A program made the translations under genes and the position numbers. This document shows, piece after piece, positions 6,060-29,482 of a stretch of DNA of 29,485 nucleotides. The notes under the pieces are model-generated. The model worked only from the letters and a program-made list of their open reading frames with translations, made no database searches and had not been told where the DNA came from. The stretch is from the NCBI GenBank assembly GCA_013115145.1, contig JAAPAO010000188.1, positions 20,352 through 49,836 of the forward strand. The letters run 5' to 3'. Within the stretch, counting starts at the first letter, position 1. Every line of letters begins with the position of its first letter. The DNA comes from Perkinsus chesapeaki. Taxonomy: Eukaryota; Perkinsozoa; Perkinsida; Perkinsidae.

Positions 6060-6367
6060 TTGATGATGATTTACTGGGTGATTTGATTATCTTGTATATA
6101 ATTATATATCCTACAATAACCGAACCACATCTAACAACAGTTGTGTATGAATGCTTTTGGGTTGTCCCTTCGTTATTGTAAAGTTCTTGACAACTCTTCA
6201 CTTTGTGTTGGTCTTTGTTAACTCCTCTGCTGGTGAAACTGCGTCAACTGACTCATATGGTAAACTTGGTTATCTTGATGAAATAGATATCTGAGCCGCA
6301 CCCAACAACAGTTTCATACGAGTTCATTTGAGTAGCTCATTTGTTAGTGTAACGTTGTTGTTTCACT
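6060..6367 (+). repeat. imperfect direct duplication upstream of the symporter genes
   Basis: Two segments of about 75 nt, near 6119 and 6293, resemble each other. Both contain CC(a/g)CA-C-AACAACAGTT followed by an ATACGAGTT/ATGAATGCTTTTG-like stretch and a GTTA(G/T)TGTAA block. The second lies directly before the first symporter ATG. It looks like a diverged duplication of a 5' untranslated or promoter region; no further gene is seen in this interval. Confidence 0.35.
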
Positions 6368-7912
6368 ATGGCATATCGCCTCCCTCTTCTTTGGGGCTAC
6401 CTACTGCTCTACATCACATTAGCCGTCTTCGCCATCCTAGCATACATCCTTCTTGTGTTTCGCTATAAGTTCATGAAAGAGTCCTCCACAGGAACTGATT
6501 CGCAACAAGATTTCTACGTCGCTCGAAAACGCTTTACTTGGTTGTGGATTGGAATGTCGTATTTCGCCAGCGGCATGGGGACGTGGGTCGTGTATGCTGC
6601 CCCGGAGGTTGGCACATTCCTTGGTTGGTGGGGAGTCATCGGCTACGCTTTGGCATGTATCTTACCGTTGGCTTTGCTCTTGATCATCGGAGTGAAAATC
6701 CGGGAAAATATCGATAAGTTGATCGGTGCCGATAGTGGTTATGCAGCAACAGATTGGATACTCGCCAGGTTCGGGCGAGTTCTCCAGGTCTACTCTGTCC
6801 TTGTTTCGATCTTCATAATGTGGATCGGCATAGTCGCCGAGTACACTGCTGTTGGGCAAGTGCTGGAGATGTTCACTGGCATTCCCACGTGGCTCACCAG
6901 CCTTTCTGTTGCCGTTGTGACTCTCAGCTACACTTTGGTCTCGGGTCTACCGATCTCGATTTTAACTGATATGGCACAGGGCTTGGCCGCCATTGGCCTT
7001 ATAATATTCGCTGTCATTGCTACTTCATCTCAAGTAACGGTCACCCAACCTGACTGGGAAGCAGTAGCGAACTGGAGCACTCTGGGCTTTGAAAGTCTAG
7101 TCACACTCATCTTGGCGATTCTGAGCGCGCAATTGTTTGATATGGTCGTCTGGCAAAGAGTTTGGGCTGCCAGGAATGACACTGACTTAAGATGGGGCTT
7201 GCTGTATGGTGGCACGCTGGTCTTTCTCACCATGATGGCCTTTGGTGTGTTGGGTATGTTGGCAGAAGCTCAAGATCGAGCCCGGGCAGCGCCACATCTC
7301 ACCATCGACCCGTATACCAAATACTTGGCCTTTTTCGATCTCCTTAGCGCACTGCCCAACGCTGCTGTCGGTTGTGTTCTGGTGCTTGCTGTTTGCCTCT
7401 CTACTTCGAGTGTCGACTCCCAGCAATCCGCTCTTTTATCGGTCTTTGCCGCCGAGTTCGTTAAACGGAATTGGAGTCTACATTGGGCACGCGTGCTACT
7501 GCTCGTCATGAACGTGCCAGCAGTTATCCTAGCAATGCGGCAAATATCCGTCCTCAATCTTTTCCTCATCGGAGACCTCATCGCGGCAACAGTATGTCTC
7601 CCTGTCTACTGTGGCCTTCATCCAAGCATCACTTCTCTTGGGGCCGTCTCTGGTGTTGTTGCTGCTAACCTGACGGTTCTTGTTTGTGGTTGGAGTTGGT
7701 ATGGCACTTTCCTCGGAGGTTTCCAGATGTACGCGTTGCCCGCAGGCTTGTACTCGTCTGCTGCTATGATTGTTTTTATCGTTGTTATGTTGACAAGCCT
7801 ATTCGTTACTGTCGGCGTTTCCGTCCTACAAATGAGATTCTATCCCTCTTCCGAAAGCTTCCTTTCTTGGGGTAGGCTCATGGCATGTCGAGTGCAAAGC
7901 GAGAGCAAGTAA
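6368..7912 (+). CDS. sodium:solute symporter family (SSS) transporter 1
   Basis: A single uninterrupted 514-residue frame starts at an ATG followed by hydrophobic residues. It has about 12-13 membrane segments. Family hallmarks are the TM2-like SYFASGMGTWVVYAAPE, the motif TLVSGLPISILTDMAQG (the SSS T-x-x-x-G-x-x-x-x-x-x-TD-x-x-Q pattern), and STSSVDSQQSALLSVFAAE, which corresponds to the ion-binding TM8 region. Such proteins import small solutes such as urea, sugars or amino acids using a Na+ or H+ gradient at the plasma membrane. The overall style resembles the fungal/plant DUR3-like branch, but the substrate cannot be read from the sequence. It lacks introns while most neighbours are intron-rich, and it forms a co-directional pair with the next gene, its paralogue. 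Confidence 0.88.
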   Translation: MAYRLPLLWGYLLLYITLAVFAILAYILLVFRYKFMKESSTGTDSQQDFYVARKRFTWLWIGMSYFASGMGTWVVYAAPEVGTFLGWWGVIGYALACILPLALLLIIGVKIRENIDKLIGADSGYAATDWILARFGRVLQVYSVLVSIFIMWIGIVAEYTAVGQVLEMFTGIPTWLTSLSVAVVTLSYTLVSGLPISILTDMAQGLAAIGLIIFAVIATSSQVTVTQPDWEAVANWSTLGFESLVTLILAILSAQLFDMVVWQRVWAARNDTDLRWGLLYGGTLVFLTMMAFGVLGMLAEAQDRARAAPHLTIDPYTKYLAFFDLLSALPNAAVGCVLVLAVCLSTSSVDSQQSALLSVFAAEFVKRNWSLHWARVLLLVMNVPAVILAMRQISVLNLFLIGDLIAATVCLPVYCGLHPSITSLGAVSGVVAANLTVLVCGWSWYGTFLGGFQMYALPAGLYSSAAMIVFIVVMLTSLFVTVGVSVLQMRFYPSSESFLSWGRLMACRVQSESK

Positions 7913-7969
7913 CTTTGTTATTTAATATTCCACAATTTCTTTTCATTCTTTCTCGTGTTTTGGCTCCGG

Positions 7970-7986
7970 GTTATTCTTCTCCTCAG
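7970..7986 (+). promoter_or_regulatory. likely trans-splice acceptor before symporter 2
   Basis: The 82-bp gap between the two symporter genes contains a pyrimidine-rich GTTATTCTTCTCCTCAG ending 8 nt before the second ATG. There is no upstream exon it could serve in cis, so it looks like a spliced-leader acceptor. Just 5' of it (7957-7970) is GTTTTGGCTCCGGG, reminiscent of the 3' end of the dinoflagellate/Perkinsus spliced leader (TTTTGGCTCAAG). The role is inferred. Confidence 0.5.
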
Positions 7987-7994
7987 CATTTGTC

Positions 7995-9578
7995 ATGTCG
8001 AAAGATGCCCTAGGTTTCAGCATTGACAATGCGACAGTCTATGCTCTTTTAATCCCGGTATTTTTCTCATTCGTAACTGCTGCGACCGTCTATGCTATGA
8101 TGAAACGGTTCAGGAGCTCCTCAAACGCCTTGGACTTCGCTGATGACTATTACACGGCTCGAGGTCGATTCTCTGGTCTTACAATTGGTCTGTCTTTCTT
8201 CGCCAGCAGTATGGGGTCTTGGGTCGTATTTGCCGTCCCTGAGGCTACGGCCACTATCGGTTGGTTCGGTCTTATTGGCTACTCCTCCTCATCTGTAGCT
8301 GTGTTAATAATATTCATGTTTCTAGGCGTGGAAGTGCGTACTAGAATGAAGGAGTACGCATCTGCTGGTTATACTTCTCATGAAGGCTTCGCTTTAACTG
8401 ACTGGGTGTTGGCTAGATATGGCCATGGTATGCAGTATATAACAGCGATAGCTTGTCTATTTTATCTCTGGTGTCTTATGACTGCCGAGTATACAGCTTT
8501 CGGTTATCTGATAAGCTTGCTTTGTACCATTCCAGTATGGATCGCACAATTACTATTATGTCTAACAACAGTCCTTTGTACCCTAATAGCTGGAGTTGCC
8601 GCTTCTGTTGTTACCGATGTTGTACAAGGATTCTGTATTGTAATTCTCACCGTTGTCGCCATTTGTATGATTGCCACACAAGTCAGTATCGTCTCTGATG
8701 ATTGGCAGTCAGTGGCCAACTTCGATTCAACTAATATTGTAGCTGGAGGTTCACTATTTTTATCTGTTATTAATGCCGAACTGTTGAACATGATATCTTG
8801 GCAACGAGTCTGGGCTGCAAAGAACCCCAAGCAACTTCGCTTGGGTTTGGTCCTCGCCGCTGTCCTGACTTTTGTAGTCATCTTCGCATTCGGTCTTATT
8901 GGGATGCTGGCAGCTGCGGAAGACCGAGGGCGTGTTGAACCACTACTGGAGAATAAGTCGCTGGCATTCTTAGTGTTGTTGCGCTCCCTGCCAACCGCGG
9001 CTGTTATCACGGCGATCTTGTTGACGATATTATTCACCACGTCTACGGTGGACTCTGCTCAAGTTGCCGTTATGACGCTGGCGGCTTCTGAGCTTCTGAA
9101 ATTTGGTAAAAGCTCTAAGTGGGCGCCAATCATTCTGATACCGTTAAACGTGTCGGCGCTACTTGCTACTATGTTAAATGTATCAATATTGGACTTGTAC
9201 TTGATAGCAGATTTGGTACTGACTACTGTATGCCCCTCGTTAATGCTTGGTCTTGATCCGTCCATGACGCCATTGGGCGCCTTGCTCGGTGTAATAGCAA
9301 GCAACTTATCTATTATGGTATTCGGGTGGTGCAGTTTTGGTACGTTCTTGGGTGGCTTCAAGATGTACCTTATCCCCGGTGACTTTTACTCTGTACAGAC
9401 TGTGCTTCTGTTTCTTATAGCTATGTCTGTTGGGGCTTTTGTGACCCTAGTTGCATCTCTAGTGCAAAGGGGCTATTATTTATCTTCTGTCGGCGTTCTT
9501 GGCCAAGGTTCCTTTACAGAACGCTTGGTCTCCGCTCATGTGGAGAACTCCCAGTACAGAGCACCGTTCAGTATATAG
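7995..9578 (+). CDS. sodium:solute symporter family (SSS) transporter 2
   Basis: A single 527-residue frame is clearly paralogous to the upstream gene. Matching blocks include SFFASSMGSWVVFAVPEA, TLIAGVAASVVTDVVQG, FTTSTVDSAQVAVMTLAASE and GTFLGGFKMYLIPGDFYS. About 13 membrane segments are predicted by eye. The family couples Na+ or H+ flow to solute uptake; the substrate is unknown. Identity between the two is moderate, with conserved spacing, so the duplication is old and both copies are intact, suggesting distinct substrates or expression. The gene is intronless. The start codon is the first ATG, directly after a strong 3' splice site, which supports this choice if the transcript is trans-spliced. 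Confidence 0.88.
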   Translation: MSKDALGFSIDNATVYALLIPVFFSFVTAATVYAMMKRFRSSSNALDFADDYYTARGRFSGLTIGLSFFASSMGSWVVFAVPEATATIGWFGLIGYSSSSVAVLIIFMFLGVEVRTRMKEYASAGYTSHEGFALTDWVLARYGHGMQYITAIACLFYLWCLMTAEYTAFGYLISLLCTIPVWIAQLLLCLTTVLCTLIAGVAASVVTDVVQGFCIVILTVVAICMIATQVSIVSDDWQSVANFDSTNIVAGGSLFLSVINAELLNMISWQRVWAAKNPKQLRLGLVLAAVLTFVVIFAFGLIGMLAAAEDRGRVEPLLENKSLAFLVLLRSLPTAAVITAILLTILFTTSTVDSAQVAVMTLAASELLKFGKSSKWAPIILIPLNVSALLATMLNVSILDLYLIADLVLTTVCPSLMLGLDPSMTPLGALLGVIASNLSIMVFGWCSFGTFLGGFKMYLIPGDFYSVQTVLLFLIAMSVGAFVTLVASLVQRGYYLSSVGVLGQGSFTERLVSAHVENSQYRAPFSI

Positions 9579-16633: not shown

Positions 16634-16846
16634 ATGGGATTCTCAACTGAGAATAGCCCCAGCCAGGCGGACTATGCTTGGTGGACTAACCTAACAGAAC
16701 CAGTCACCAGCGTTTCGCTGGCAACTTACGTTTTTGAAGCTGTGACTGCTAAAGATATGTTGCGCAGCGTATACAGTACTGAAGCTCCGAATTCAAAGAA
16801 AGGCTCTCTGGGGTTCGAACCCGCGCCGAAAATATCACATGGATAA
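16634..16846 (+). CDS. possible small protein (70 aa), unknown
   Basis: The ATG frame encodes a mildly acidic protein starting MGFSTENSPSQADYAWW. Near its 3' end the DNA contains GGTTCGAACCC, a perfect Pol III B-box-like sequence, read as GFEP. No cloverleaf could be drawn around it. Nothing else supports or denies coding; it may be an isolated exon. Confidence 0.22.
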   Translation: MGFSTENSPSQADYAWWTNLTEPVTSVSLATYVFEAVTAKDMLRSVYSTEAPNSKKGSLGFEPAPKISHG

Positions 16847-17567
16847 TGAGATTTTGGTTTATCGCTCTCCTCGTTTCACTAAAACGCCTCTTAAGTTCAA
16901 GCAAAAGAATCAACCCGGTGAGTCACCGGCGGTGACCCTCGACTACCAGTAACTGACATTTTCTTTCACAATTTCCTAACCATCAGTTACTCGTTGTTCT
17001 CGAAGCGGTCCTCGTTGTACCATAATTTGACAATAGTATTAATCGCCTCTCTCAACACTAATCCCTATTAAACTGACAAATGTGTCCATAATCTGGACAT
17101 GTGTTAACCATCACAAACTTAACAGATCAAGTGAGGCTCGAATTTACACTCAATCATAACATTATCATCGATATTCAGTTATTTACATATAACGATCTTG
17201 ATTGAATTCATATCAATACTCGGCGGTCTCAATCTTCTAAGTCCTCCGAATGATTCTGTAGCCTTGGTGTTCTCTGTGGTATCTATTTTATAATGTGCAT
17301 TATGTCCCTCTGTGGGGCAACTTCGGAAGTCTCTTGCCGGTCTTCCGACTCTCTTCGCTTAGGACGCAATGTGGCTGACCACTTGCATTTTGCTATCGAC
17401 GCTTTGCTGTGCTATGCTACGCTTTGCTATTTTGCTATGGGCGAGCTAGTTCTGCTCGATATCGACGCTCTTCCATAGGAGGTTGTATCTGCGCTTCAAA
17501 GATCGTACCCCTCAGTAATGGTTCAATCGACCTGGTTAAGTATCTTTACACTCAGTTGTCGTTACTA
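16847..17567. other. intergenic region upstream of the methylthiotransferase
   Basis: No gene is recognised. At 17395-17440 there is a short degenerate run of GCTTTGCTAT/GCTATGCT units. The frame of the downstream gene is open from 17409 but contains no ATG before 17568, so 17409-17567 is taken as 5' untranslated sequence. Confidence 0.5.
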
Positions 17568-19202
17568 ATGAGCTCTGATTCCTCCCCTTCAACAGCTTTG
17601 AAGGTCGCAGCTGCCGGTGGGGCACTTTTGGCCACCTCGGCGTATCTTTACTATGTTTGGTCAACTCGACCTCTCCCGGAAGATGCCTCTTGCGGGTGTT
17701 GTTCGAACGAAGATGATCAGGAATCTTGCGGGTGCGGTGGAGAATCTTTTACAACTACTACTGGTATGCCGGAGCTTGAAGATTTGGATCTGTCGGCGGA
17801 CTTGACGCCTGTAGCGAGCCGAAGGTCAACGAGGACTGCCGAGGTTGCTCGCAAGCGACCTCAAAGGGAATCTTTAGAGAGAGACGAAAATCTTCCGGGT
17901 GCGGGTCAAAAGATATTCTTCAAAACTTTCGGGTGCAGCCACAACACCAGCGACTCGGAATATATGATGGGTCTCTTGTCGAGCTATGGATACGATTTTA
18001 CAAAGCAAATGTCGGAGGCGAACGTCGCGGTTTTAAATTCTTGCACCGTGAAGAATCCCAGTGAAGATGCTTTGGTCACCCTGGTGAGAGCGGCGGAGAA
18101 GGCAGGTGTGCCTTCGGTTGTGTGCGGATGTGTCCCGCAGGCTGATAAGAGGAATAAGGCACTGCAGAAATCGAGTTTGGTGGGAACAAGTCAGATTGAT
18201 AGGATTGTGGAAGTGGTTGAGGAGACGTTAAAGGGGAATCGAGTGACATTGTTGCATAGTAAGAAATTGCCAGAGCTCCGGGAGCTTCCGAAGATTCGGC
18301 GCAATCCGCTGGTCGAGATTGTCCCGGTCAACACGGGATGTCTGGGAAAATGCTCATATTGCAAAACTAAGTACGCCAGGGGGTCCTTGGGGTCCTATAG
18401 TAGGCAAGATATAGTTGCACGCGTGCGCATGGCTCTGTCGGAGGGGGTGCAGCAAATCTGGCTCACATCAGAGGATTTAGGGGCGTACGGATTGGATATC
18501 AATACGAACATCGCGGAGCTGCTGAAGGAGATCGTGGTCGAGCTGGAAAAGTATCCTGAGTCGATGATGAGGTTGGGCATGACGAACCCGCCTTATATTT
18601 TGGAACACGCTGAGGAGGTAGCTAAGATTCTTGCGCACCCGCAAGTTTTTGAGTTCATCCATATCCCAATTCAATCCGGCAGCAATGACGTGCTGAGGCA
18701 TATGATTCGGGAATACACCGTCGAGGACTTCGATCGGCTTGTGGGTATCTTACGGGCTCGAGTGCCGAACTTGACGGTGGCGACGGACATCATTTGTGGA
18801 TTCCCGACTGAGTCGGAGGAGAATCATAAGGAGACGTTGGACTTGATAGAACGTCACAAATTCCCGGTAATTAATATAAGTCAGTTCTACGCGAGACCGG
18901 GGACGTCGGCCGCCAGAATTCGACCGAGAATCCCAGGGAAGATCATCAAGGCTCGCAGCACTGAGGTGACGAATCTTTTCATGTCTTACTCTTTAAATGA
19001 CAGCCTTTATCGAGTCGGGGAGATCCTGGATATCTGGTTTGATGAGTTGGACAGCAGAAGGGGACAGACAATTGGGCACACAAAGAGGTATACTAAGGCG
19101 ATAGTGATTGGAGAAGAGAGCGGTATGATCGGGAAGCGGAGGAGAGCTCGAGTGGTTGACAACAGCTCCAAATGGCACATTGTAGTATCTGTAGTTCACT
19201 GA
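17568..19202 (+). CDS. CDKAL1-type tRNA threonylcarbamoyladenosine methylthiotransferase
   Basis: The frame of 544 residues is intronless. Enzymes of this radical-SAM family convert t6A37 of ANN-decoding tRNAs to ms2t6A. The N-terminal UPF0004 domain shows the three cluster-binding Cys: KTFGCSHNTSDSE (C123), NSCTVKNPSED (C159) and VVCGCVPQ (C188). The radical-SAM motif CX3CX2C is GCLGKCSYC (C258, C262, C265). Downstream family blocks such as IPIQSGSNDVLRHM and the C-terminal TRAM domain (about residues 480-544) are present. Animal CDKAL1 has a C-terminal membrane tail; here the C-terminus is soluble, and instead residues 10-31 form a hydrophobic anchor followed by a Cys-rich segment (CGCC-x8-CGCGG, residues 42-58). 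ATG 17568 is the first in frame. The family call is firm; the localisation is inferred. Confidence 0.93.
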   Translation: MSSDSSPSTALKVAAAGGALLATSAYLYYVWSTRPLPEDASCGCCSNEDDQESCGCGGESFTTTTGMPELEDLDLSADLTPVASRRSTRTAEVARKRPQRESLERDENLPGAGQKIFFKTFGCSHNTSDSEYMMGLLSSYGYDFTKQMSEANVAVLNSCTVKNPSEDALVTLVRAAEKAGVPSVVCGCVPQADKRNKALQKSSLVGTSQIDRIVEVVEETLKGNRVTLLHSKKLPELRELPKIRRNPLVEIVPVNTGCLGKCSYCKTKYARGSLGSYSRQDIVARVRMALSEGVQQIWLTSEDLGAYGLDINTNIAELLKEIVVELEKYPESMMRLGMTNPPYILEHAEEVAKILAHPQVFEFIHIPIQSGSNDVLRHMIREYTVEDFDRLVGILRARVPNLTVATDIICGFPTESEENHKETLDLIERHKFPVINISQFYARPGTSAARIRPRIPGKIIKARSTEVTNLFMSYSLNDSLYRVGEILDIWFDELDSRRGQTIGHTKRYTKAIVIGEESGMIGKRRRARVVDNSSKWHIVVSVVH

Positions 19203-19911
19203 AACGTATTGGAGGTATTTTCCGAATGATAAGGTTTTAGTTGCATTCTAGAGGGAGGGCTTCATTCGGGGAGCTGGTGGTCTGGAAATTAATTAGATTT
19301 AGGGAAGTATATTTTGGTAACCTCATAGGGATTGCCAAGAGTTCGTAAAGGATCGGCAGGAGTTGGGCATGTATTCCATGTCTACTCTTGCTCTTATATC
19401 CTCTTATCTGGAAACGCATCTGTGAGGTTGGCGCTTGAATAGTTATTCAGATCATTGTAGGCTATTGCGGAAGTTCACGGTGAGCCCATTTCGAGCTCAC
19501 CAATGGGGTAAGTATCAGGCATAAATCCGTCGTCCACTTGTGGGAGCTCGAAGCTGGGGGTGCAGTTTATGTTGCTGGATTCCTCATAACGATAATTTAT
19601 ATTGAGCTGAGTGTCGCAATTCAAAAGATTGAGTGAAGGCCTGAATTCTCTTTGTAGCGTCCATGTTGCCTCAGTTTCATTATTATGATTTCTAAGCTCA
19701 CATCGTCGACGAGACTGTCATATGGGGGAGTGATGCGATTGAGGTACTAGTGGAGATTGAACGGGGAAATGTCCGCAAAATTCCTGGAAAAATTATTGGA
19801 AAATTTTTAGGTTTTTTGAAAACAAACTTCATGAAATAAGGCGGAGGAGGTAGTTGCTGAGCGAATAGTGGAAGATATTTTCTGGGAAATTTTCGGAAAT
19901 TTCTGGCTCAA
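19203..19911. other. intergenic region with hairpin and A/T-rich degenerate repeats
   Basis: This is the 3' flank of the methylthiotransferase and the 5' flank of the next gene. A perfect 6-bp inverted repeat, GTGAGC...GCTCAC, lies at about 19480-19500. From 19780 on, degenerate GGAAATTTT/AAATTTTCGG units recur and reappear in intron 2 of the next gene (about 20310-20345). No coding exon is supported. Confidence 0.4.
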
Positions 19912-22900
19912 ATGGGAAAATATAAAATTCGTTCCAGCCGAAAAGTACTTCTTAAATTTCGGTGCATTTCTCATACCGATTTTTCTTCAAAAAAGGTAGC
20001 GGGCATACTTCGATTTCCCGTGAATTTTTTGCCGAGCTTATTTTTAGTCGCGTCTTGCGAAATGAAGCTGCCGTCGCTGTTGAGGTGCAAACCAGAGATT
20101 GGGTGTCTCAAGTTGAATATGAATCTCTAGATAGTATCATTAATACCGCCTATGCGATGGCGAAGGATGATAGGGATAGTTTTAAAAAGGTACGTATATC
20201 ACGGAGCATTTGCTTCCTCGGCCGGGCGCGAAAGTTTTCTCACGGATTCGGAAGTCTAGGAAATGGACGGCTCGCAGAGCCACCATGGCTGTTGGATGCC
20301 TTGGATGAATTTCCCGAAAAATTTTCGAGAAGTTTCTGGAGATTTTTTTGGTTAATTGTATCATATGATCGAGGGTAGGAAATATCTATCGCCGGGACTT
20401 CCGGAGATATTCAATAGCCTGAAGTGATTTGCCAAAATGACAGTTCTACAGAGTCTGGAGATCGAGCTTCAAGTGTTGTAGAGGTGACCCTTTTCTTTCT
20501 CTTTGGGCTGTCTTGGGAAGTGTAGGAAAATGTTGCGCAAAAATGTCGGTACCGGCGATTGAACCTCTAAGACCTGGACGGTCTTAGTCGAACTGATAAC
20601 TCCTGAAGGACGGGATATGGCTATTTCAGAGGATCGTGCCGTTGATTAATAATCATCATTCGTTGTCGGCTCACCACGCCTTGGTGTTGTTATCGATGAT
20701 GAACGAGAATGGCTGTGTTGATAGAGTAATGGGTGAAAAGATACTCGAGGCTGTGGAGAATAGGTAGGAGCAAGTAAGATACAAAATAGGTTAAGTTCTG
20801 GACATCTCAGGTATTTCTCATCGGAGACGTTCTTTCCTCCGAGAGAGGCGGATCCGCGGCAGGCTGAGTGGATAAGGGGGATGCTAGTGTCGCAAATGCC
20901 AGGTGAGAAGCGAAAGGCCGTGGGTTCAAATCCTGGTGAGGGCATTTCAGGTGAATTTCAATCCTTTCCGGATTTCCTTTCCTTTGTTCGACCTGATCAA
21001 CTAGCTAAGCTCATCATTGCAGACGATCTTCGTCTTAAAGATGACTACAGGGAGCCTCTGAAACATGTAAGAGCTATTCGTTTGCGTAAAGTAAATGATG
21101 ATCTTTCTCGTGCTGAGTCGATGTGGTGGTGAAGTCGCCGGTTCGATTCCCATGTTCGGCATTTTTATCGAGAAACAACGAACGGGATTATTGGAAGGAA
21201 ATTATAAAGTTTTGACTCTGTAAAGAGAAACTAACAGATTGCTCCATGGTCACTTGAAACGGCAACGTTGGGTCACGGTGTGGCTTCATTATGGCAAGTG
21301 TATTGTCAGAGACCGCAGTCAACAGTGCCGTCGAAGGAGAAGGTCACTACACGATGGAAAACAATGGACCCAGTGGATATGGAGGTAAGTAGCTGAGCAG
21401 GTAGAGCAGCCTGCTTCATATGTGGAGGTCGGTGGTTCTATTCCTGGTCATGGTATTTTAGGCTTGGGAGAGGGATAGGTTTTTAAAGGCGCAAATTCCC
21501 TTCAAAAGGATGCGACATGTCGAAGCAGATGCGCAGAAATGGAGGATGCGACCGGGGAACAGGTAGCCAGTTGTTTAGTAATCTTTGGTAATTCCGGAGG
21601 TCAGATTGAGGCCAGCATTGGGAGTGCAACTCACCGAGCTGATCGAGAAGAGCAATAATATCGTCACCTTAGCGCACTTGATGTCGCCTATCTGTTATGT
21701 GAGCGAGTAAAACTGCCGAGTTCCGGGATCGAACTTGGGACCTTTGGGTTGGTAGACACTCTCTCTTCCGAGGGGACTATAAAAGAACTGCAGCGGACGT
21801 GTGCGCTAAAGCTGTTATGAAGATGCAGAAGAAGAAGTTGGAGTCATGCATTGTGGTGATTGCACTGGTAAGTGACTTGGGAAACACTGTAAGTGTTAGA
21901 AATTACAATTATCTAACTTATGAAAGGTCAGAAGGGATTCTCATCTCTCTGGCGCGAAGTGGCATAAATCATCCTTCTGAGGATCTGATTATCATGCCTG
22001 GTAATCTTGCTCAGTCACTCTCACGGTTGTCCTTAACACCGGATCTCCACAAGGTTTGGGATGCCGTACTCTTGCCGTCTATTGGCAAGTTGAAGGTCAA
22101 GGATCTCACGTCACAGGTGACGAGTGTCTTCGCGTCACGTCACACGTATGCCATCCCTGTCAGGCCGTCTTACCCCCGCATCTTCGACTGAGCTCGTCGA
22201 GTTCGGTCGAGTTTGATTTGTCAGTTCTGCTCTTCAGAGCATTGGTTCAGTCTGGGTTCGTACCGAGGACGTCTACGGGCATTGAGGTGAGGTCATCGCC
22301 TCGCCGACGTGATCGATTGCTCTGCAGAAAATCTGCGGGTTGCTAAGTAAAACGTTGAAGTCAAGTGAGGTTGTCCGAGTCGAATCAGTGTCGATGCTGG
22401 TTCGTTTAATGTTGAGGGCGGAGATCAACCATAAAGGTTTGAGGGAGCTGCTTATGGGTAGTTGTCCTCGGTGGGAACCGAAGGAAGCTAATTCGAAGGT
22501 AAGGGTGGTACTTTACACCGATAGTCGCGGGCACATGGGCTTAATGCAGTGCGAGGCGTAAAAAGGGCCGCGTTGTTTCGCGTGCTTGTTAGTTGTTCCG
22601 AATCTCTTACTGGCCTCACTTGGGAGGAAGGTGTGCTCCTTTGCCAATAATAGAAAGTCTGATACCTCGCTGGAAGGCGCTTTCGGAGAGCCTTCCTGAT
22701 AGTTGCCAACGTTTTGGTGAAGTTGATGTTATCTCAGTTGCTTGTTTGTAACTTGTAAGTATCTTGGCAGAGCGATAAAATTGTAATTATAAATTTTGCA
22801 GAAGCTGAGGATCCATGAAATTCAAAGAATGTTCGCTGCCTAAAGTTTAGTGATTTTGTGGCGCGCGACATTTTGGGAGCAGTTGCCTTGGTTGAAGTCA

Positions 22901-23581
22901 GTAAACCGTGGAGGAATGCAGATTCAATTTTTCTTGAGGAGAAGATTTCCCATCTGTATTCATATAATATCTCCTCATTAGTAACAAACTTTAACGGTGA
23001 AAGTTTGTTGCGAGATTGAAAATTTCACTCTCAGAGATCACACTTCCGTGAGACGTGGGTCCACTGTTGTTGGTGGGCACTGCCCAGGCATGTTTATGAT
23101 AGGAAATGGCAGTAGCAACTGGCTCGTTGATATTCTTGAGAGTTCATTTCGATAAGAAACCTTTAACGAAGAAGGAGCTTGAAACAGTGTTGGCCTTGTG
23201 GAACAGTTGTAAGACGGCTGTGGACGACTTGGCTCAGGTGAGGTCGTTGGTTCGATCCCGGGGAGGGGTATTTTAATTGTATTTATTCAGGGTGAAAGGC
23301 TTTTATTGTTGAACGCTATTCATGCTACGGGTCACCCAGATATACTAGAAGGCGACGAAGACTACGAAACTGCACTGAGAAGGCATCTTCTTCCGAAGTA
23401 CTCATACCGCTCTCTCGATTTCTTCTTGAACTTTGTCGGTATACCGCACTCGGCACTTTTGGTTAGGCAAACAGCAGCCGTTATTCTTCCTTTTCAGCCC
23501 GGACTTCTCGTTGGAAAATCTTGGACAAGTCGGTACATGGCAGGAAGGAGGCGGCTTAGAGCATTGAGCAACTGTGCATGA
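19912..23581 (+). CDS. about 17-exon helical protein of unknown function with tRNA-like introns
   Basis: Phase-consistent exons are 19912-19995, 20037-20189, 20418-20483, 20630-20763, 20811-20902, 20951-21066, 21238-21384, 21462-21562, 21605-21706, 21786-22116, 22212-22286, 22328-22457 (or to 22498), 22550-22630, an unresolved piece near 22654-22740, 22828 (or 22846)-22996, 23113-23237 and 23291-23581. The product, at least 720 residues, is mostly amphipathic helix (for example HHALVLLSMMNENGCVD, FDLSVLLFRALVQSGF), suggesting a helical-repeat scaffold. The N-terminus (MGKYKIRSSRKVLLKFRC) is basic with no acid and could be an organelle-targeting sequence. The ATG directly follows TTCTGGCTCAA, similar to a spliced-leader end. 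About six introns carry tRNA-like sequence (listed separately). Exons 12-15 are uncertain, with a possible frameshift near 22631. No family is recognised; helical RNA-binding proteins of alveolate organelles are one possibility. Confidence 0.6.
20540..20585 (-). repeat. tRNA-like 3' half inside intron 3
   Basis: On the minus strand this reads AGGTTCAATCGCCGG (B-box-like) followed by TACCGACA and TTTTT, as at the 3' end of a tRNA gene with its Pol III terminator. An 8-bp hairpin (CTAAGACC...GGTCTTAG) lies just 5' of it. It is within intron 20484-20629. No correctly placed D arm is visible. Confidence 0.5.
20861..20947 (+). repeat. tRNA-Leu/Ser-like sequence across exon 5 and intron 5
   Basis: GGCTGAGTGGATAAGG (A box and D loop typical of type II tRNAs) starts at 20862 and a B box GGTTCAAATCC is at 20923-20933, 62 nt apart as expected for a long variable arm. 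It is followed by TGAGGGCATTT. No anticodon or acceptor stem forms. The donor AG|GTGAGA at 20902/20903 falls inside the unit, so its 5' half is translated and its 3' half is the 48-nt intron. Confidence 0.55.
21110..21166 (+). repeat. tRNA-like fragment inside intron 6
   Basis: A D-arm-like GTGCTGAGTCG is followed, with about 14 nt missing relative to a standard tRNA, by AGTCGCCGGTTCGATTCCC (B box at 21140-21150) and GTTCGGCATTTTT, an acceptor-like end plus a T run. It lies in the intron between exons ending at 21066 and starting at 21238. Confidence 0.5.
21383..21461 (+). repeat. whole tRNA-like unit forming intron 7
   Basis: Intron 21385-21461 (77 nt) is one tRNA-sized unit. The A box TAGCTGAGCAGG begins at 21390 (tRNA position 8) and the B box GGTTCTATTCC at 21434 (position 52), exactly 44 apart. 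In tRNA numbering the invariant A14, G18, G19, A21, T33, T54, T55, C56, A58, C61 and A73 are all present, followed by TTTTAG, which supplies the 3' splice site. Acceptor, anticodon and T stems do not pair, so it is not a working tRNA. Flanking exons join in phase. Confidence 0.7.
21707..21786 (-). repeat. whole tRNA-like unit, inverted, forming intron 9
   Basis: Intron 21707-21785 (79 nt) is a tRNA-sized unit on the minus strand. The A box (TAGTCCCCTCGG, degenerate) has position 8 at 21779 and the B box AGTTCGATCCC has position 52 at 21735, again exactly 44 apart. G18, G19, A21, T33, A37, G53, T54, T55, C56, A58, C61 and A73 are in register; anticodon positions read ACC. Then comes GTTTTAC, whose complement gives the donor GTAAAAC. 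Stems are largely unpaired. Confidence 0.68.
23230..23274 (+). repeat. tRNA-like unit with deleted anticodon arm at intron 16
   Basis: TGGCTCAG (D-arm/A-box-like) at the end of the exon is followed by GTGAGGTCGTTGG, the B box GGTTCGATCCC (23249-23259) and GGGGAGGGGTATTTT. The spacing is 25 nt shorter than in a tRNA, as if the anticodon arm were lost. The donor CAG|GTGAGG lies in the D-loop position. The 53-nt intron (23238-23290) separates two strongly coding exons. Confidence 0.5.
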
Positions 23582-24644: not shown

Positions 24645-24792
24645 TTAAGATGCGGCTTGATTAGTAGCGTTGAGTGTACGCGAGCGATTCCAGAGTAGCA
24701 CTCGGGCCTACCGCTGTACCGACTACCATGGTATTTAGAACATACTGCTTCAGAGTATTCGTGAACCCTGTTTGATTATTCTGCATTTTACA

Positions 24793-25554
24793 ATGATCCA
24801 CGCCTTGTTCATGTGGTCTATCTGCTGGTGGATTTGCAACTGTGCCCACCGCAACCACCAGATACGAGATGGGACATATTTCAACCAAGAAGCAGGGATT
24901 TGGGTGTATTTCAACCATGGGAAAGTATCAGCTCTCCTTAATGGAGGGATGAGCATATTCAAGATGGACTACACTACTTACAAACTCGACGAGAAGACTG
25001 GTTTCATCACCATTGATTCCCCAGCTCTTCGTGAGGATGCCTACAAGTCATTTCCTTTTGTTAAGCCACTTTGGAACTTAACTTACGTCAAGGCCAAAGA
25101 TGAAGTGCTACTCAATTACCCAAAAGCTAAGGAACCTATTCACCTTACGAAGGATGGCAGCCAATATGTAAAGCATCATCGTCCCGGTAACTTAACTTAC
25201 AAGACTTTCTGTGCATCTACTGATCAAAAAAGGCAGGATGTGGATGCTACTATCATGTTCGCGCATCCTACTGCGCCACTCGGTGTATTGACGCTAACAA
25301 AAGGTATGTGGATGAGCATGCACGGTGACTATCAGCTACGTGATGGTCCCTCTGAAGAGCTCAAGCGTATTTGGACTGAGACAATGGACAATTATACTAC
25401 TCTCGATGATACCCCTTTCATGGAATTTTCGACAATAATGTATTATAATACTAAATTGGATGTTATCAACATGAGCAGCAAATCATCTAACGACTTTTGG
25501 ATTTTCGAACCTAAAGACATGTCTACCTGTACTCCGTGGGGGGTTGCCCAGTAG
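24793..25554 (+). CDS. secreted protein, NLTY family, intact copy
   Basis: The 253-residue intronless frame starts at ATG 24793 with MIHALFMWSICWWICNCAH, a signal-peptide-like start. The open frame extends 7 codons upstream without an ATG. Two NLTY motifs (N-glycosylation sequons) occur, the first in NLTYVKAKDEVLLNYPK, which aligns with the minus-strand gene at 15234. Cys are few. The C-terminus is FWIFEPKDMSTCTPWGVAQ, with no GPI signal or membrane segment seen. Function is unknown; export is inferred from the N-terminus. The 3' two thirds (25023 onward) are almost identical in DNA to the broken copy 1.6 kb downstream, whereas the first 75 residues differ strongly. Confidence 0.72.
   Translation: MIHALFMWSICWWICNCAHRNHQIRDGTYFNQEAGIWVYFNHGKVSALLNGGMSIFKMDYTTYKLDEKTGFITIDSPALREDAYKSFPFVKPLWNLTYVKAKDEVLLNYPKAKEPIHLTKDGSQYVKHHRPGNLTYKTFCASTDQKRQDVDATIMFAHPTAPLGVLTLTKGMWMSMHGDYQLRDGPSEELKRIWTETMDNYTTLDDTPFMEFSTIMYYNTKLDVINMSSKSSNDFWIFEPKDMSTCTPWGVAQ
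25023..25515 (+). repeat. near-identical tract shared with 26667-27160 (donor or acceptor of conversion)
   Basis: This coding stretch matches 26667-27160. The first ~310 nt, AGCTCTTCGTGAGG to GGTGACTAT, differ at one base (the stop mutation). After that there are about eight substitutions and a 4-nt deletion in the other copy. Sequences on both sides are much more diverged. Confidence 0.85.
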
Positions 25555-26437
25555 AACAGGCTTTAGAATAGTCGACTCCTGTGAATGTCACGAGTGTATG
25601 GCAATTGTAAGTCGACTAAACAAGTCAAGTCCTTAAATTATTGTCAGATCAACAACATAATATCACTTCTTTGTATCCCTATTAAACTTCTTCTATGACA
25701 AGGATTGGAATTTGAGTTCAAAGGCGAATAATCAAGTATAAATCGAATACGAATACTCTCTCCGACATACCATAAAAATACATGATCTTTCTTGGAGGTA
25801 TATCACTCCGGCATTGTGCAGGGCACATTGCTCGACAACAATGACTGAAAACGGGAATTTCGGTTTGAGTTATCGGAAGCAGGCTTTATATTTTTAGAGT
25901 CCCATTGAAAATAATATCTAACAATTAAAGACTATGTAACGGTTAGATAATCTCTACTAGCCTAGACAGAGGCTAGTTACTAACCTAGTACTGTACTTAT
26001 AGTGTAGTAGCAGCTGTTCATGCACCTACATGACAACGTGAGATACAATTGTTGCCGCGAAATCCGTTACGGCATGTTTCTATCAGATCTGTCACATAGA
26101 ACCGGTGCCACATTGTCAAGCAATTCTGAATGAACATTGAGCAAATATCTATCACTGATCCAACGATCGGTTACGGAGCTTACAAGAGAAGCTGGTTGCC
26201 AAAAGCACTGTTTGGCAGCCTTAGTATCATATATTTGCCACGGACTTGGAGTCGGGAGTCGTAGTGTTATCAGCTCTTTCTTCTATACATGCACTACCCG
26301 GGTTCCTCTCTGGAGTCCAGAGAAGGACGTGGGTAGTGCACGAGAACTGCCCAGTCAAAGCGTCCGCTGCGCTCAAGTATTTTGAATGTACTTTTTCAGA
26401 GCATTTATCAATCTGTTTAAATATAAAGGGTTCCACA
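25555..26437. other. intergenic region between the two secreted-protein copies
   Basis: No gene is supported. The first ~270 bp are the 3' flank of the intact copy; 25705-25800 aligns loosely with 27195-27290 behind the broken copy (TTTGAGTTC...CGACATAC...ACATGATC.TTCTT). A 7-bp inverted repeat CTAGCCT/AGGCTAG lies at 25957-25976. A long hairpin at 26290-26340 is listed separately. Confidence 0.5.
26290..26340. repeat. 51-nt near-perfect hairpin
   Basis: TGCACTACCC (26290-26299) is the exact reverse complement of GGGTAGTGCA (26331-26340). Inside, TTCCTCTCTGG and CCAGAGAAGGA also pair with one mismatch around a 3-nt loop. It lies about 100 nt upstream of the broken copy's ATG. Confidence 0.85.
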
Positions 26438-27192
26438 ATGATCCGCGCTTTGCTCATGTGGTCTATTTGCTGGTGCATTGGCTACAGTGGCCACCACAAG
26501 CCCCCGATAAGCGATAGAGTGTACTGTAACAGAAAGTATGGGGCTGAGGTGCATTTCGCTAAAGGGATAGTGTCGCCCTCTCTTGACGGAGAGAAGATCA
26601 CCTTCGGCCAATACCAAACCGATTACAAATGCGACAAGAAGACTGGTTTCATCATCATTAATTCCCGAGCTCTTCGTGAGGATGCCTACAAGTAATTTCC
26701 TTTTGTTAAGCCACTTTGGAACTTAACTTACGTCAAGGCCAAAGATGAAGTGCTACTCAATTACCCAAAAGCTAAGGAACCTATTCACCTTACGAAGGAT
26801 GGCAGCCAATATGTAAAGCATCATCGTCCCGGTAACTTAACTTACAAGACTTTCTGTGCATCTACTGATCAAAAAAGGCAGGATGTGGATGCTACTATCA
26901 TGTTCGCGCATCCTACTGCGCCACTCGGTGTATTGACGCTAACAAAAGGTATGTGGATGAGCATGCACGGTGACTATGTGCTACGTGATGGTCCCTCTGA
27001 AGAGCTCGTATTTGGACTGAGGCAATGGATAATTATACTACTCTCGATGATACCCCTTTCATGGAATTTTCAACAATAATGTATTATAATACTAAATTGG
27101 ATGTTATCAACATGAGCAGCAAATCATGTAAGGACTTTTGGATCTTCGAACCTAAAGATTATCAAACATTTTTCTCCCATCGCGTTAATTAG
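26438..27192 (+). pseudogene. secreted protein, NLTY family, broken tandem copy
   Basis: Homologous to the gene at 24793. It keeps an ATG and a signal-peptide-like start (MIRALLMWSICWCIGYSGHH). Residues 20-75 differ widely from the intact copy, and from about 26665 the DNA becomes nearly identical. Two breaks are visible: a nonsense codon TAA at 26693-26695 where the intact copy has TCA, and loss of 4 nt (AAGC) after 27007, which shifts the frame. The ancestral frame would have stopped at TAG 27190-27192, with a different C-terminus from the intact copy. A truncated 85-residue secreted peptide could still be made from the 5' part. Confidence 0.8.
26667..27160 (+). repeat. conversion-like tract matching 25023-25515
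   Basis: Almost identical to the corresponding part of the intact copy (see that entry). Both the upstream coding part and the 3' flank of this copy are far more diverged, so the tract has clear edges. Confidence 0.85.
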
Positions 27193-28834: not shown

Positions 28835-29482
28835 TTACTTGCAGTAGGGGCTGCCACAGAGCTGATCACCCCCTTGGCACGTCGGAGGGTCCTTCCACAC
28901 TTTGCAATACGAACCTATGCCATTCAGCGCAGTACAAATAGAAGAGCAGTCTTGCAGTGTATCGTCAGAGTCATTGGACAGTATTACCGAACATGCACTG
29001 CTGTCACCACAGGGTTGATTACCTCCTTGACAGACAGGGAAGGCTGTCCACGACTTGCAGTATGACGCGGGGCCGTTCAGTGACTTACACATGCCGTCAC
29101 AGTGACGCTGCTGCGCCTTGGTGGAAGTCGAACTATGAATTTGTGGTGCAGTGGTTGAAATGTCAAGAGACTGGCAATTCGCGAGGGAACCACATGGTTG
29201 ATTACCATACTGGCATACAGGCGAAGGAAGCCAGTCCTTGCAATAGGATGCCGGGCCATTAACATGCTTGCAGTAATGACCACATACAAGACGACTATCT
29301 ACGGTGGAAACATCAATTGTTGTAGTGGAGAGCGTAGCTGGCCTAGTGGTTGATGCTGGGGACGTTGCACTCATTTCGGCTCTAGTTGTCGTACTTGTTC
29401 TAGTTGTTGTGGTACTTGTTCTAGTTGTTGTGGTACTTGTTCTAGTTGTTGTGGTACTTGTTCTAGTTGTTGTGGTACTTGT
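28835..29482 (-). CDS. Thr-rich protein with three Cys-rich domains, 5' part missing
   Basis: The frame is open from 29482 to the stop at 28835; the first ATG is at 29374, but no signal peptide follows it, so upstream exons beyond the window are likely. The N-terminal part is a repeat of TSTTTTR heptads and further Ser/Thr-rich sequence, mucin-like and a probable O-glycosylated stalk. Three domains follow, counted from the ATG at about residues 31-67, 90-127 and 140-178. Each has six Cys (C-x3-C-x9-C-x8-C-x6-C-x4/5-C) around the core NGPASYCK and CQGGNQPCG (third: NGIGSYCK, CQGGDQLCG). The domain is not one I can name; extracellular adhesion or carbohydrate binding is a guess from architecture. 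Confidence 0.65.
   Translation of the reverse strand, partial: TSTTTTRTSTTTTRTSTTTTRTSTTTTRTSTTTRAEMSATSPASTTRPATLSTTTIDVSTVDSRLVCGHYCKHVNGPASYCKDWLPSPVCQYGNQPCGSLANCQSLDISTTAPQIHSSTSTKAQQRHCDGMCKSLNGPASYCKSWTAFPVCQGGNQPCGDSSACSVILSNDSDDTLQDCSSICTALNGIGSYCKVWKDPPTCQGGDQLCGSPYCK

What the first reader, a model, noticed from the sequence alone, without database searches (positions are those of the whole stretch)
20484..23290. A set of introns in one gene built from decayed tRNA-like units
Six introns or intron edges of the 19912-23581 gene contain tRNA-like sequence: 20540-20585 (minus), 20861-20947, 21110-21166, 21383-21461, 21707-21786 (minus) and 23230-23274. Two are decisive. Introns 21385-21461 (77 nt) and 21707-21785 (79 nt) are in opposite orientations, yet both align gap-free to canonical tRNA numbering: A-box to B-box distance is exactly 44 nt, invariant loop bases (G18, G19, A21, T33, T54, T55, C56, A58, A73) are in register, and a TTTT run follows position 73. 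The T run or its complement forms the splice site (TTTTAG| or |GTAAAAC). Stems no longer pair. Flanking exons are coding and in phase. No other gene in the window shows this. The simplest reading is that a tRNA-derived mobile element (SINE-like) created introns, an introner-like process; I know of no described tRNA-type introner in this lineage.
Basis: partly seen in the sequence, partly recalled or inferred. Interest (0 to 1): 0.92.

Follow-up and report, generated by a model that had tools for sequence, protein, structure and literature searches.

The report
Introns made from tRNA-like 3' ends
In a Perkinsus shellfish parasite genome, a family of short introns each consist largely of the back half of a tRNA-like sequence, in either direction, which suggests that tRNA-derived mobile DNA has been turning into new introns.

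Summary
Largely confirmed, with corrections, and genome-wide. The host is a Perkinsus species near P. olseni. All six sites match a 36-nt tRNA-like unit (scores 18-41; Markov resamples about 0): tRNA positions ~42-73 plus TTTT. Its exact core occurs 390 times, 0 in the reversed control; 1172 vs 12 with up to one mismatch. Of 85 units not chosen for introns, 69 lie in predicted introns (44 sense, 25 antisense) vs 27.6% of null windows; 41 fit the intron within 20 nt at both ends vs 5.9%. Orthologue and Pfam alignments support splicing. T-stems do not pair above chance; no target-site duplications were found. Best reading: a tRNA-derived, mostly 5'-truncated, introner-like element. Insertion is inferred, not shown.

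The parts
21385..21461 (+). intron (77 nt), full-length tRNA-like unit, sense; D-arm-like 21390-21408, T-arm/B box and ATTTT within 21424-21459, TTTTAG at the 3' splice site
   Evidence: orthologues continuous across the junction; matrix 32.1; D-arm 17/19, 0 of 20,000 shuffles
20903..20950 (+). intron (48 nt) holding a 3'-half unit (20913-20948), sense
   Evidence: P. olseni reads HGEFQSF where this gene reads P|GEFQSF, with a 2-residue gap close by; the read-through residues are absent there; matrix 32.0. The gene finder had put the acceptor at 21004
21067..21309 (+). intron (243 nt) holding a 3'-half unit (21130-21165), sense, exact core match
   Evidence: P. olseni reads VKTRPKST where this gene reads LKH|RPQST; matrix 34.5; listed
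21707..21755 (+). intron (49 nt) made of a 3'-half unit in antisense (unit 21710-21745 minus); 5' splice site GTAAAAC is the complement of the T run
   Evidence: P. olseni HALFRGDYK aligns to the codons from 21756; matrix 30.0
23238..23290 (+). intron (53 nt) holding a 3'-half unit (23239-23274), sense, exact core match
   Evidence: own gene finder; matrix 40.8; listed; no orthologue checked over this junction
20540..20575 (-). weakest unit, inside a predicted 440-nt intron 20190-20629
   Evidence: matrix 18.3; gene finder; P. olseni P0002 reads NFEKRLIPLINEHHSL where this gene reads SFKK|RIVPLINNHHSL (sequence, compared by eye)
20951..21066 (+). coding exon
21310..21384 (+). coding exon
21462..21562 (+). 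coding exon
21605..21706 (+). coding exon
21756..21866 (+). coding exon (HSLFRGDYKRTAADVC...), conserved in P. olseni; its true 3' end was not settled

Best explanation
These introns are copies of a small tRNA-derived (SINE-like, Pol III-type) element, mostly cut off at its 5' end near the variable loop, that became introns where they landed in coding exons. Shown by sequence: the unit (tRNA positions ~42-73 plus TTTT) forms most of many introns of about 45-55 nt, occurs in both orientations, interrupts conserved proteins in a way that splicing would repair, and is found genome-wide. In sense, the T run lies at or a few nt before the 3' splice site, usually with a GTRAG-like donor 0-14 nt upstream of the unit. 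In antisense, the complement of the T run (GTAAAA) can serve as the donor. Inferred: the units inserted as RNA copies of Pol III-type transcripts ending in U's, by target-primed reverse transcription (3' end fixed, 5' end variable), and copies lying next to usable splice sites survived as introns.
For: Core pattern 390 exact vs 0 in the reversed control; 1172 vs 12 at up to one mismatch. 119 aligned units share tRNA 42-73 and TTTT. 69 of 85 units in L070-L149, fetched for the core pattern only, lie in predicted introns vs 27.6% of null windows; 41 of 85 fit the intron to within 20 nt at both ends vs 5.9%. In 44 of 69 unit introns, taking away the 36-nt unit leaves under 32 nt, the shortest intron my gene finder allows; unit introns (median 54) are no longer than the 113 others in those loci (median 55). 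GTAAG lies 0-25 nt upstream of 63 units genome-wide where about 10 would be expected for some 400 units (own arithmetic). Both orientations occur. Pfam matches span unit junctions in Ras, Pantoate_transf, Sec1, L12 and NatA proteins. P. olseni P0005 runs without a gap through three unit junctions of L048, one antisense, and through a fourth with a 3-residue gap. P0001 runs over four unit junctions of the window gene. Three Rab paralogues read WDTAGQER(F/Y) unbroken where L060 has the intron. One full-length tRNA-like intron in the window.
Against: No target-site duplication above permutation (70 sense, 21 antisense). T-stem outer pairs are no commoner than in permuted data (49-65: 37% vs 45%; 50-64: 72 vs 71; 51-63: 45 vs 48; all five pairs in 14 of 128), so these do not look like fresh copies of working tRNAs. 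A box at class-I spacing in only 13 of 150 vs 4.1 shuffled, so no active full-length source was found. No RNA data and no empty orthologous site. Of the other Rab paralogues, C132 matches in two pieces that meet near the same position and the C179 match begins there, so the L060 position may not be new.
Confidence: 0.6

Rival explanations
1. tRNA-derived elements inserted into pre-existing introns, which then shrank or were the only tolerated sites.
For: Exon insertions are usually harmful, so enrichment in introns alone is expected. Some unit introns are long (21067-21309 in the window; 90th percentile 212 nt). Two Rab paralogues may have an intron near the L060 position.
Against: Unit introns are not longer than others (median 54 vs 55), in 44 of 69 the remainder is under 32 nt, and 41 of 85 units sit within 20 nt of both splice sites. 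Three Rab paralogues lack the L060 intron.
Confidence: 0.18
2. The B box plus T run is kept by selection in introns for a present function (TFIIIC or extra-TFIIIC site, or an RNA-processing signal), whatever its origin.
For: B box and ATTTT are intact while T-stem pairing is absent and 66-72 shows 117 distinct strings in 128 units. Introns fall nearly into two classes: in L001-L038 275 of 285 score below 0 and 3 score 12 or more; in L070-L149 109 of 177 below 0 and 65 at 12 or more; 7 and 3 lie between.
Against: Units were found through the B box and T run, which biases the first point. Both orientations occur, which a splicing signal would not explain. Only 3 of 285 introns in L001-L038 carry one.
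Confidence: 0.15
3. They are ordinary tRNA genes or tRNA pseudogenes nested in genes, with no role in making introns.
For: A few loci hold apparently intact tRNA genes in or beside predicted introns (L045 Val, L046 Trp, L090 Arg), and at least one tRNA-like case (L085) stayed in my counts.
Against: ARAGORN and Rfam find no tRNA in the window. Most units lack the 5' half and T-stem pairing. Unit edges tend to be the intron edges.
Confidence: 0.05
4. Chance resemblance.
Against: 0 reversed-pattern matches vs 390.
Confidence: 0.01

Closest known systems
Introners / introner-like elements (Gozashti et al. 2022, PMC9860276; Amoebophrya, PMC7789003; passages of both seen)
   Same: A family of similar sequences whose edges coincide with introns in many genes, in an aquatic protist. 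Amoebophrya is a dinoflagellate, and a passage of PMC9399869 calls Perkinsozoa the sister lineage of dinoflagellates.
   Different: The repeated part is a tRNA-like 3' half with B box and T run. The 2022 abstract calls most introners consistent with DNA transposition; its main text has 0 occurrences of 'tRNA', 'SINE' or 'Perkinsus' (supplements not read). Amoebophrya introners carry inverted and direct repeats; here direct repeats were not found and inverted repeats were not tested.
p-SINE1-like intron of the rice CatA gene (Iwamoto et al. 1999; seen only as a reference-list entry in PMC3151243; that p-SINE1 is tRNA-derived is recalled)
   Same: An intron resembling a tRNA-derived SINE.
   Different: As far as I know a single case; here a genome-wide family of minimal 3'-half units.
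tRNA-derived SINEs and tRNA retropseudogenes (recalled)
   Same: B box kept, T run at the end, 5' truncation, stems decayed.
   Different: No body beyond the tRNA part is conserved in the aligned units, no duplications were found, and most copies sit as introns.

Membership tests
Introner | many introns in unrelated genes sharing sequence | tested here: met
   128 intronic units over many loci; 390 exact cores genome-wide
Introner | element edges coincide with intron edges | tested here: met
   41 of 85 within 20 nt at both ends vs 5.9% null; the other 44 do not fit so closely or are not in introns
Introner | recent gain: position empty in relatives | tested here: inconclusive
   three Rab paralogues lack one intron, two others may have one nearby; no sister DNA available
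Introner | insertion hallmark (target-site duplication) | tested here: not met
   no excess over permutation; not shown by every introner family (a figure legend of PMC9860276, describes Alternaria introners without features of known DNA transposition)
tRNA-derived SINE | A and B boxes of a tRNA promoter in the same copy | tested here: inconclusive
   B box in the units (mostly by selection); A box at class-I spacing in 13 of 150 vs 4.1 expected
tRNA-derived SINE | dispersed copies ending in a T-rich or A-rich tail | tested here: met
   A73-TTTT at fixed distance from the B box, 390 exact
tRNA-derived SINE | Pol III transcription and LINE-driven mobility | not testable with these tools
   needs RNA data and a partner LINE
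functional tRNA gene | cloverleaf with paired stems | tested here: not met
   no ARAGORN or Rfam hit in the window; T-stem pairing at the permuted level in 128 units

The most novel reading that the evidence does not exclude
The introns themselves are the mobile lineage: B-box/T-run introns keep what a Pol III-type mobile RNA needs (B box, discriminator A, terminator) while the rest drifts from copy to copy, so a tRNA 3' half has become a self-renewing intron-making element without an intact tRNA as source.
Probability: 0.2. Interest if true: 0.92.

Novelty: new variant of a known kind. Interest (0 to 1): 0.8.

Why it matters
Where spliceosomal introns come from is a long-open question. Known introners are mostly ascribed to DNA transposons (abstract passage of PMC9860276). 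A family in which a tRNA-like 3' half supplies the body and often part of a splice site of the intron, in both orientations, would add a Pol III-derived route and make it testable by comparing Perkinsus species.

Tried and rejected
Rejected: full-length tRNA reading for 20861-20947 and 21707-21785 (coding sequence conserved in P. olseni); class-II A-box spacing (17 of 150 vs 10.9 shuffled at the threshold of 5); target-site duplications; decayed relics in ordinary short introns (351 short introns without a unit: excess 0.50, standard error 0.31, on each strand); T-stem conservation. Little or nothing came of the DNA search with one intron (self hit only), the homologue search for L041 (no hit), (trailing N's were ignored, so the pattern was too short to use; first gene finder, no minimum intron length, over-split). 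Limits of the gene finder: trained on the window and L001-L069, which include unit introns; it seems to predict too many introns; it misplaced one acceptor (21004 for 20950); its minimum intron of 32 nt was set by me. L070-L149 were not in its training, except where they overlap trained loci (L088 with L041). The unit matrix was built from L040-L149, so it is not independent of them.
Full report
The organism. The window is C99:20352-49836 of a 35.4-Mb, 884-contig genome with spliceosomal introns. Its gene at 19912-23581 matches P. olseni proteins P0001 and P0002; with corrected exons P0001 is 84% identical over 195 positions. Another gene (L048) is 89% identical to P. olseni P0005 over 341 positions. 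I take it to be a Perkinsus species; which one is not known. The neighbouring gene at 17379-19202 matches UPF0004 and Radical_SAM.

The observation. ARAGORN finds no tRNA in the window, and Rfam finds none at the gathering score or at E up to 10. A search of the whole genome for a B box followed by ATTTTAG gave 31 matches and 0 for the reversed pattern; 26 of the 31 have exactly 10 bases between. Without the AG, the exact core GGTTCGANNCC-N10-ATTTT occurs 390 times vs 0, and 1172 vs 12 with up to one mismatch. The step from 390 to 782 one-mismatch copies would fit about 14% change per fixed position and some 2,900 units if mismatches are Poisson. Independently, 7 units at matrix score 12 or more in 110.8 kb of loci fetched for kinases and tRNAs (tRNAs masked, some loci overlapping) scale to about 2,200; 4 of the 7 are in predicted introns and 3 in predicted exons. 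Both totals are extrapolations. Of the 390, 23 have AG right after the four T's (my count), about what chance gives, so TTTTAG is not a fixed part of the unit.

What the unit is. Aligned, 119 units share tRNA positions ~42-73 and the T run; positions 66-69 are nearly random, 70-73 mostly GGCA or GGTA, and no A box or T33 stands out. Of 150 units not overlapping an ARAGORN tRNA, 13 have an A box at class-I spacing (4.1 in shuffles, 3 in an upstream control). Of the five window units in that test only the one in 21385-21461 stands out; its D-arm-like stretch matches 17 of 19 recalled consensus positions, one of them free. The unit is therefore mostly a 3' tRNA half with a variable 5' end.

The units are the introns. 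I wrote a gene finder and trained it on the window and L001-L069 (785 introns, median 62 nt). L070-L149 are 80 stretches round places among the first 100 listed of the 390; places already held for AG and the last few listed were left out. There 71 of 88 units (score 20 or more) fell in predicted introns, 10 in exons, 7 between genes; after removing ARAGORN tRNAs, 69 of 85 (44 sense, 25 antisense; 9 exon, 7 intergenic) against 27.6% of 20,000 random windows in the same loci outside units and unit introns, and 41 of 85 fit the intron to within 20 nt at both ends against 5.9% (binomial p 1e-24 and 7e-28). One tRNA-like case that ARAGORN did not call (L085) is still counted. Unit introns have a median of 54 nt, the 113 other introns in the same loci 55; in 44 of 69 the intron minus the unit would be under 32 nt. 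An exact GTAAG lies 0-25 nt upstream of 63 units genome-wide; the reversed whole pattern gives 0, and my own arithmetic for chance is about 10 for some 400 units. After the T run, AC (giving GTAAAA in antisense) is the commonest dinucleotide, 14 of 82, AG 9 of 82. Close-fitting cases are listed (79 sense, 27 antisense, drawn from all loci including those chosen for AG, with a few true tRNA genes among them).

Independent support for splicing. In L060 the intron splits the Rab motif WDTG|GQERF and the spliced protein matches Ras; in L062 (Pantoate_transf), L069 (Sec1), L059 (L12) and L046 (NatA) Pfam matches run across unit junctions. For L061 the match ends one residue past the junction; for L047 (Adaptin) it spans both junctions with much unaligned protein. 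In L048, P. olseni P0005 runs without a gap through the junctions at residues 27 (antisense unit), 102 and 180, and has three more residues exactly at 302; its alignment ends before the other two. In the window P0001 runs over 20903-20950 (a 2-residue gap close by), 21067-21309, 21385-21461 and 21707-21755. These are predicted proteins, not RNA: they show conserved coding on both sides and none in the unit.

Origin. Three other Rab genes here read WDTAGQER(F/Y) straight through; C132 matches in two pieces meeting near that place and the C179 match begins there. That is at best weak support for gain; I put the main reading at 0.60 rather than 0.62, and the old-intron rival at 0.18 rather than 0.17, after adding C179. 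No direct repeats flank the units beyond permutation.

The puzzle. T-stem outer pairs are not formed above permutation, while B box and T run are intact, which is partly forced by the search. 36 of 231 pairs of variable positions are associated at z above 3, many of them neighbours, so there is some subfamily structure. Introns are close to two classes, with a unit or without a trace (short introns without a unit show no clear excess). Units cluster: 23 of 351 non-central introns in L040-L069 vs 3 of 285 in L001-L038 carry one (p 0.0004), though the two sets hold different kinds of genes. A lineage that must keep its B box and terminator to move, and little else, would explain this; so would selection on the intron. 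I cannot separate them.

Print. Searches in the open-licence PMC library listed, by title and start of abstract, no paper on tRNA-derived introners or on introners in Perkinsus; two searches showed 20 of 24 and 12 of 21 papers. Subscription papers and preprints are mostly not held. In PMC9860276, PMC7789003, PMC9399869 and PMC3151243 I saw passages only.

Noticed in passing
16796-16831 (minus): A seventh tRNA-like unit (matrix 22.2) outside predicted genes.
   Followed up: partly
17379-23581: P. olseni P0002, named a threonylcarbamoyladenosine tRNA methylthiotransferase, runs from the end of the radical-SAM protein into the gene studied here, and my gene finder joined the two as well; fused gene or mis-annotation.
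   Followed up: no
28835-29482 (minus): Open frame with repeats of the type SYCKxW...VCQxGxQxCG beside a TST-rich stretch; no search was run on it.
   Followed up: no
24739-25554 and 26225-27079: Neighbouring near-identical open frames (YVKAKDEVLLNYPKAKEPIHLTKDGSQYVKHHRPGNLTYKTFCAS...), an apparent recent duplication.
   Followed up: no
6353-7912 and 7926-9578: Two adjacent long open frames of similar, apparently multi-pass membrane proteins, a likely tandem pair.
   Followed up: no
L048: 19 predicted introns in 3 kb, six of them tRNA-like units in both orientations, the densest case seen.
   Followed up: partly
L045 1507-1579, L046 2382-2455, L090 233-305: Apparently intact tRNA genes (Val, Trp, Arg) inside or beside predicted introns, possible links between tRNA genes and unit introns.
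   Followed up: no
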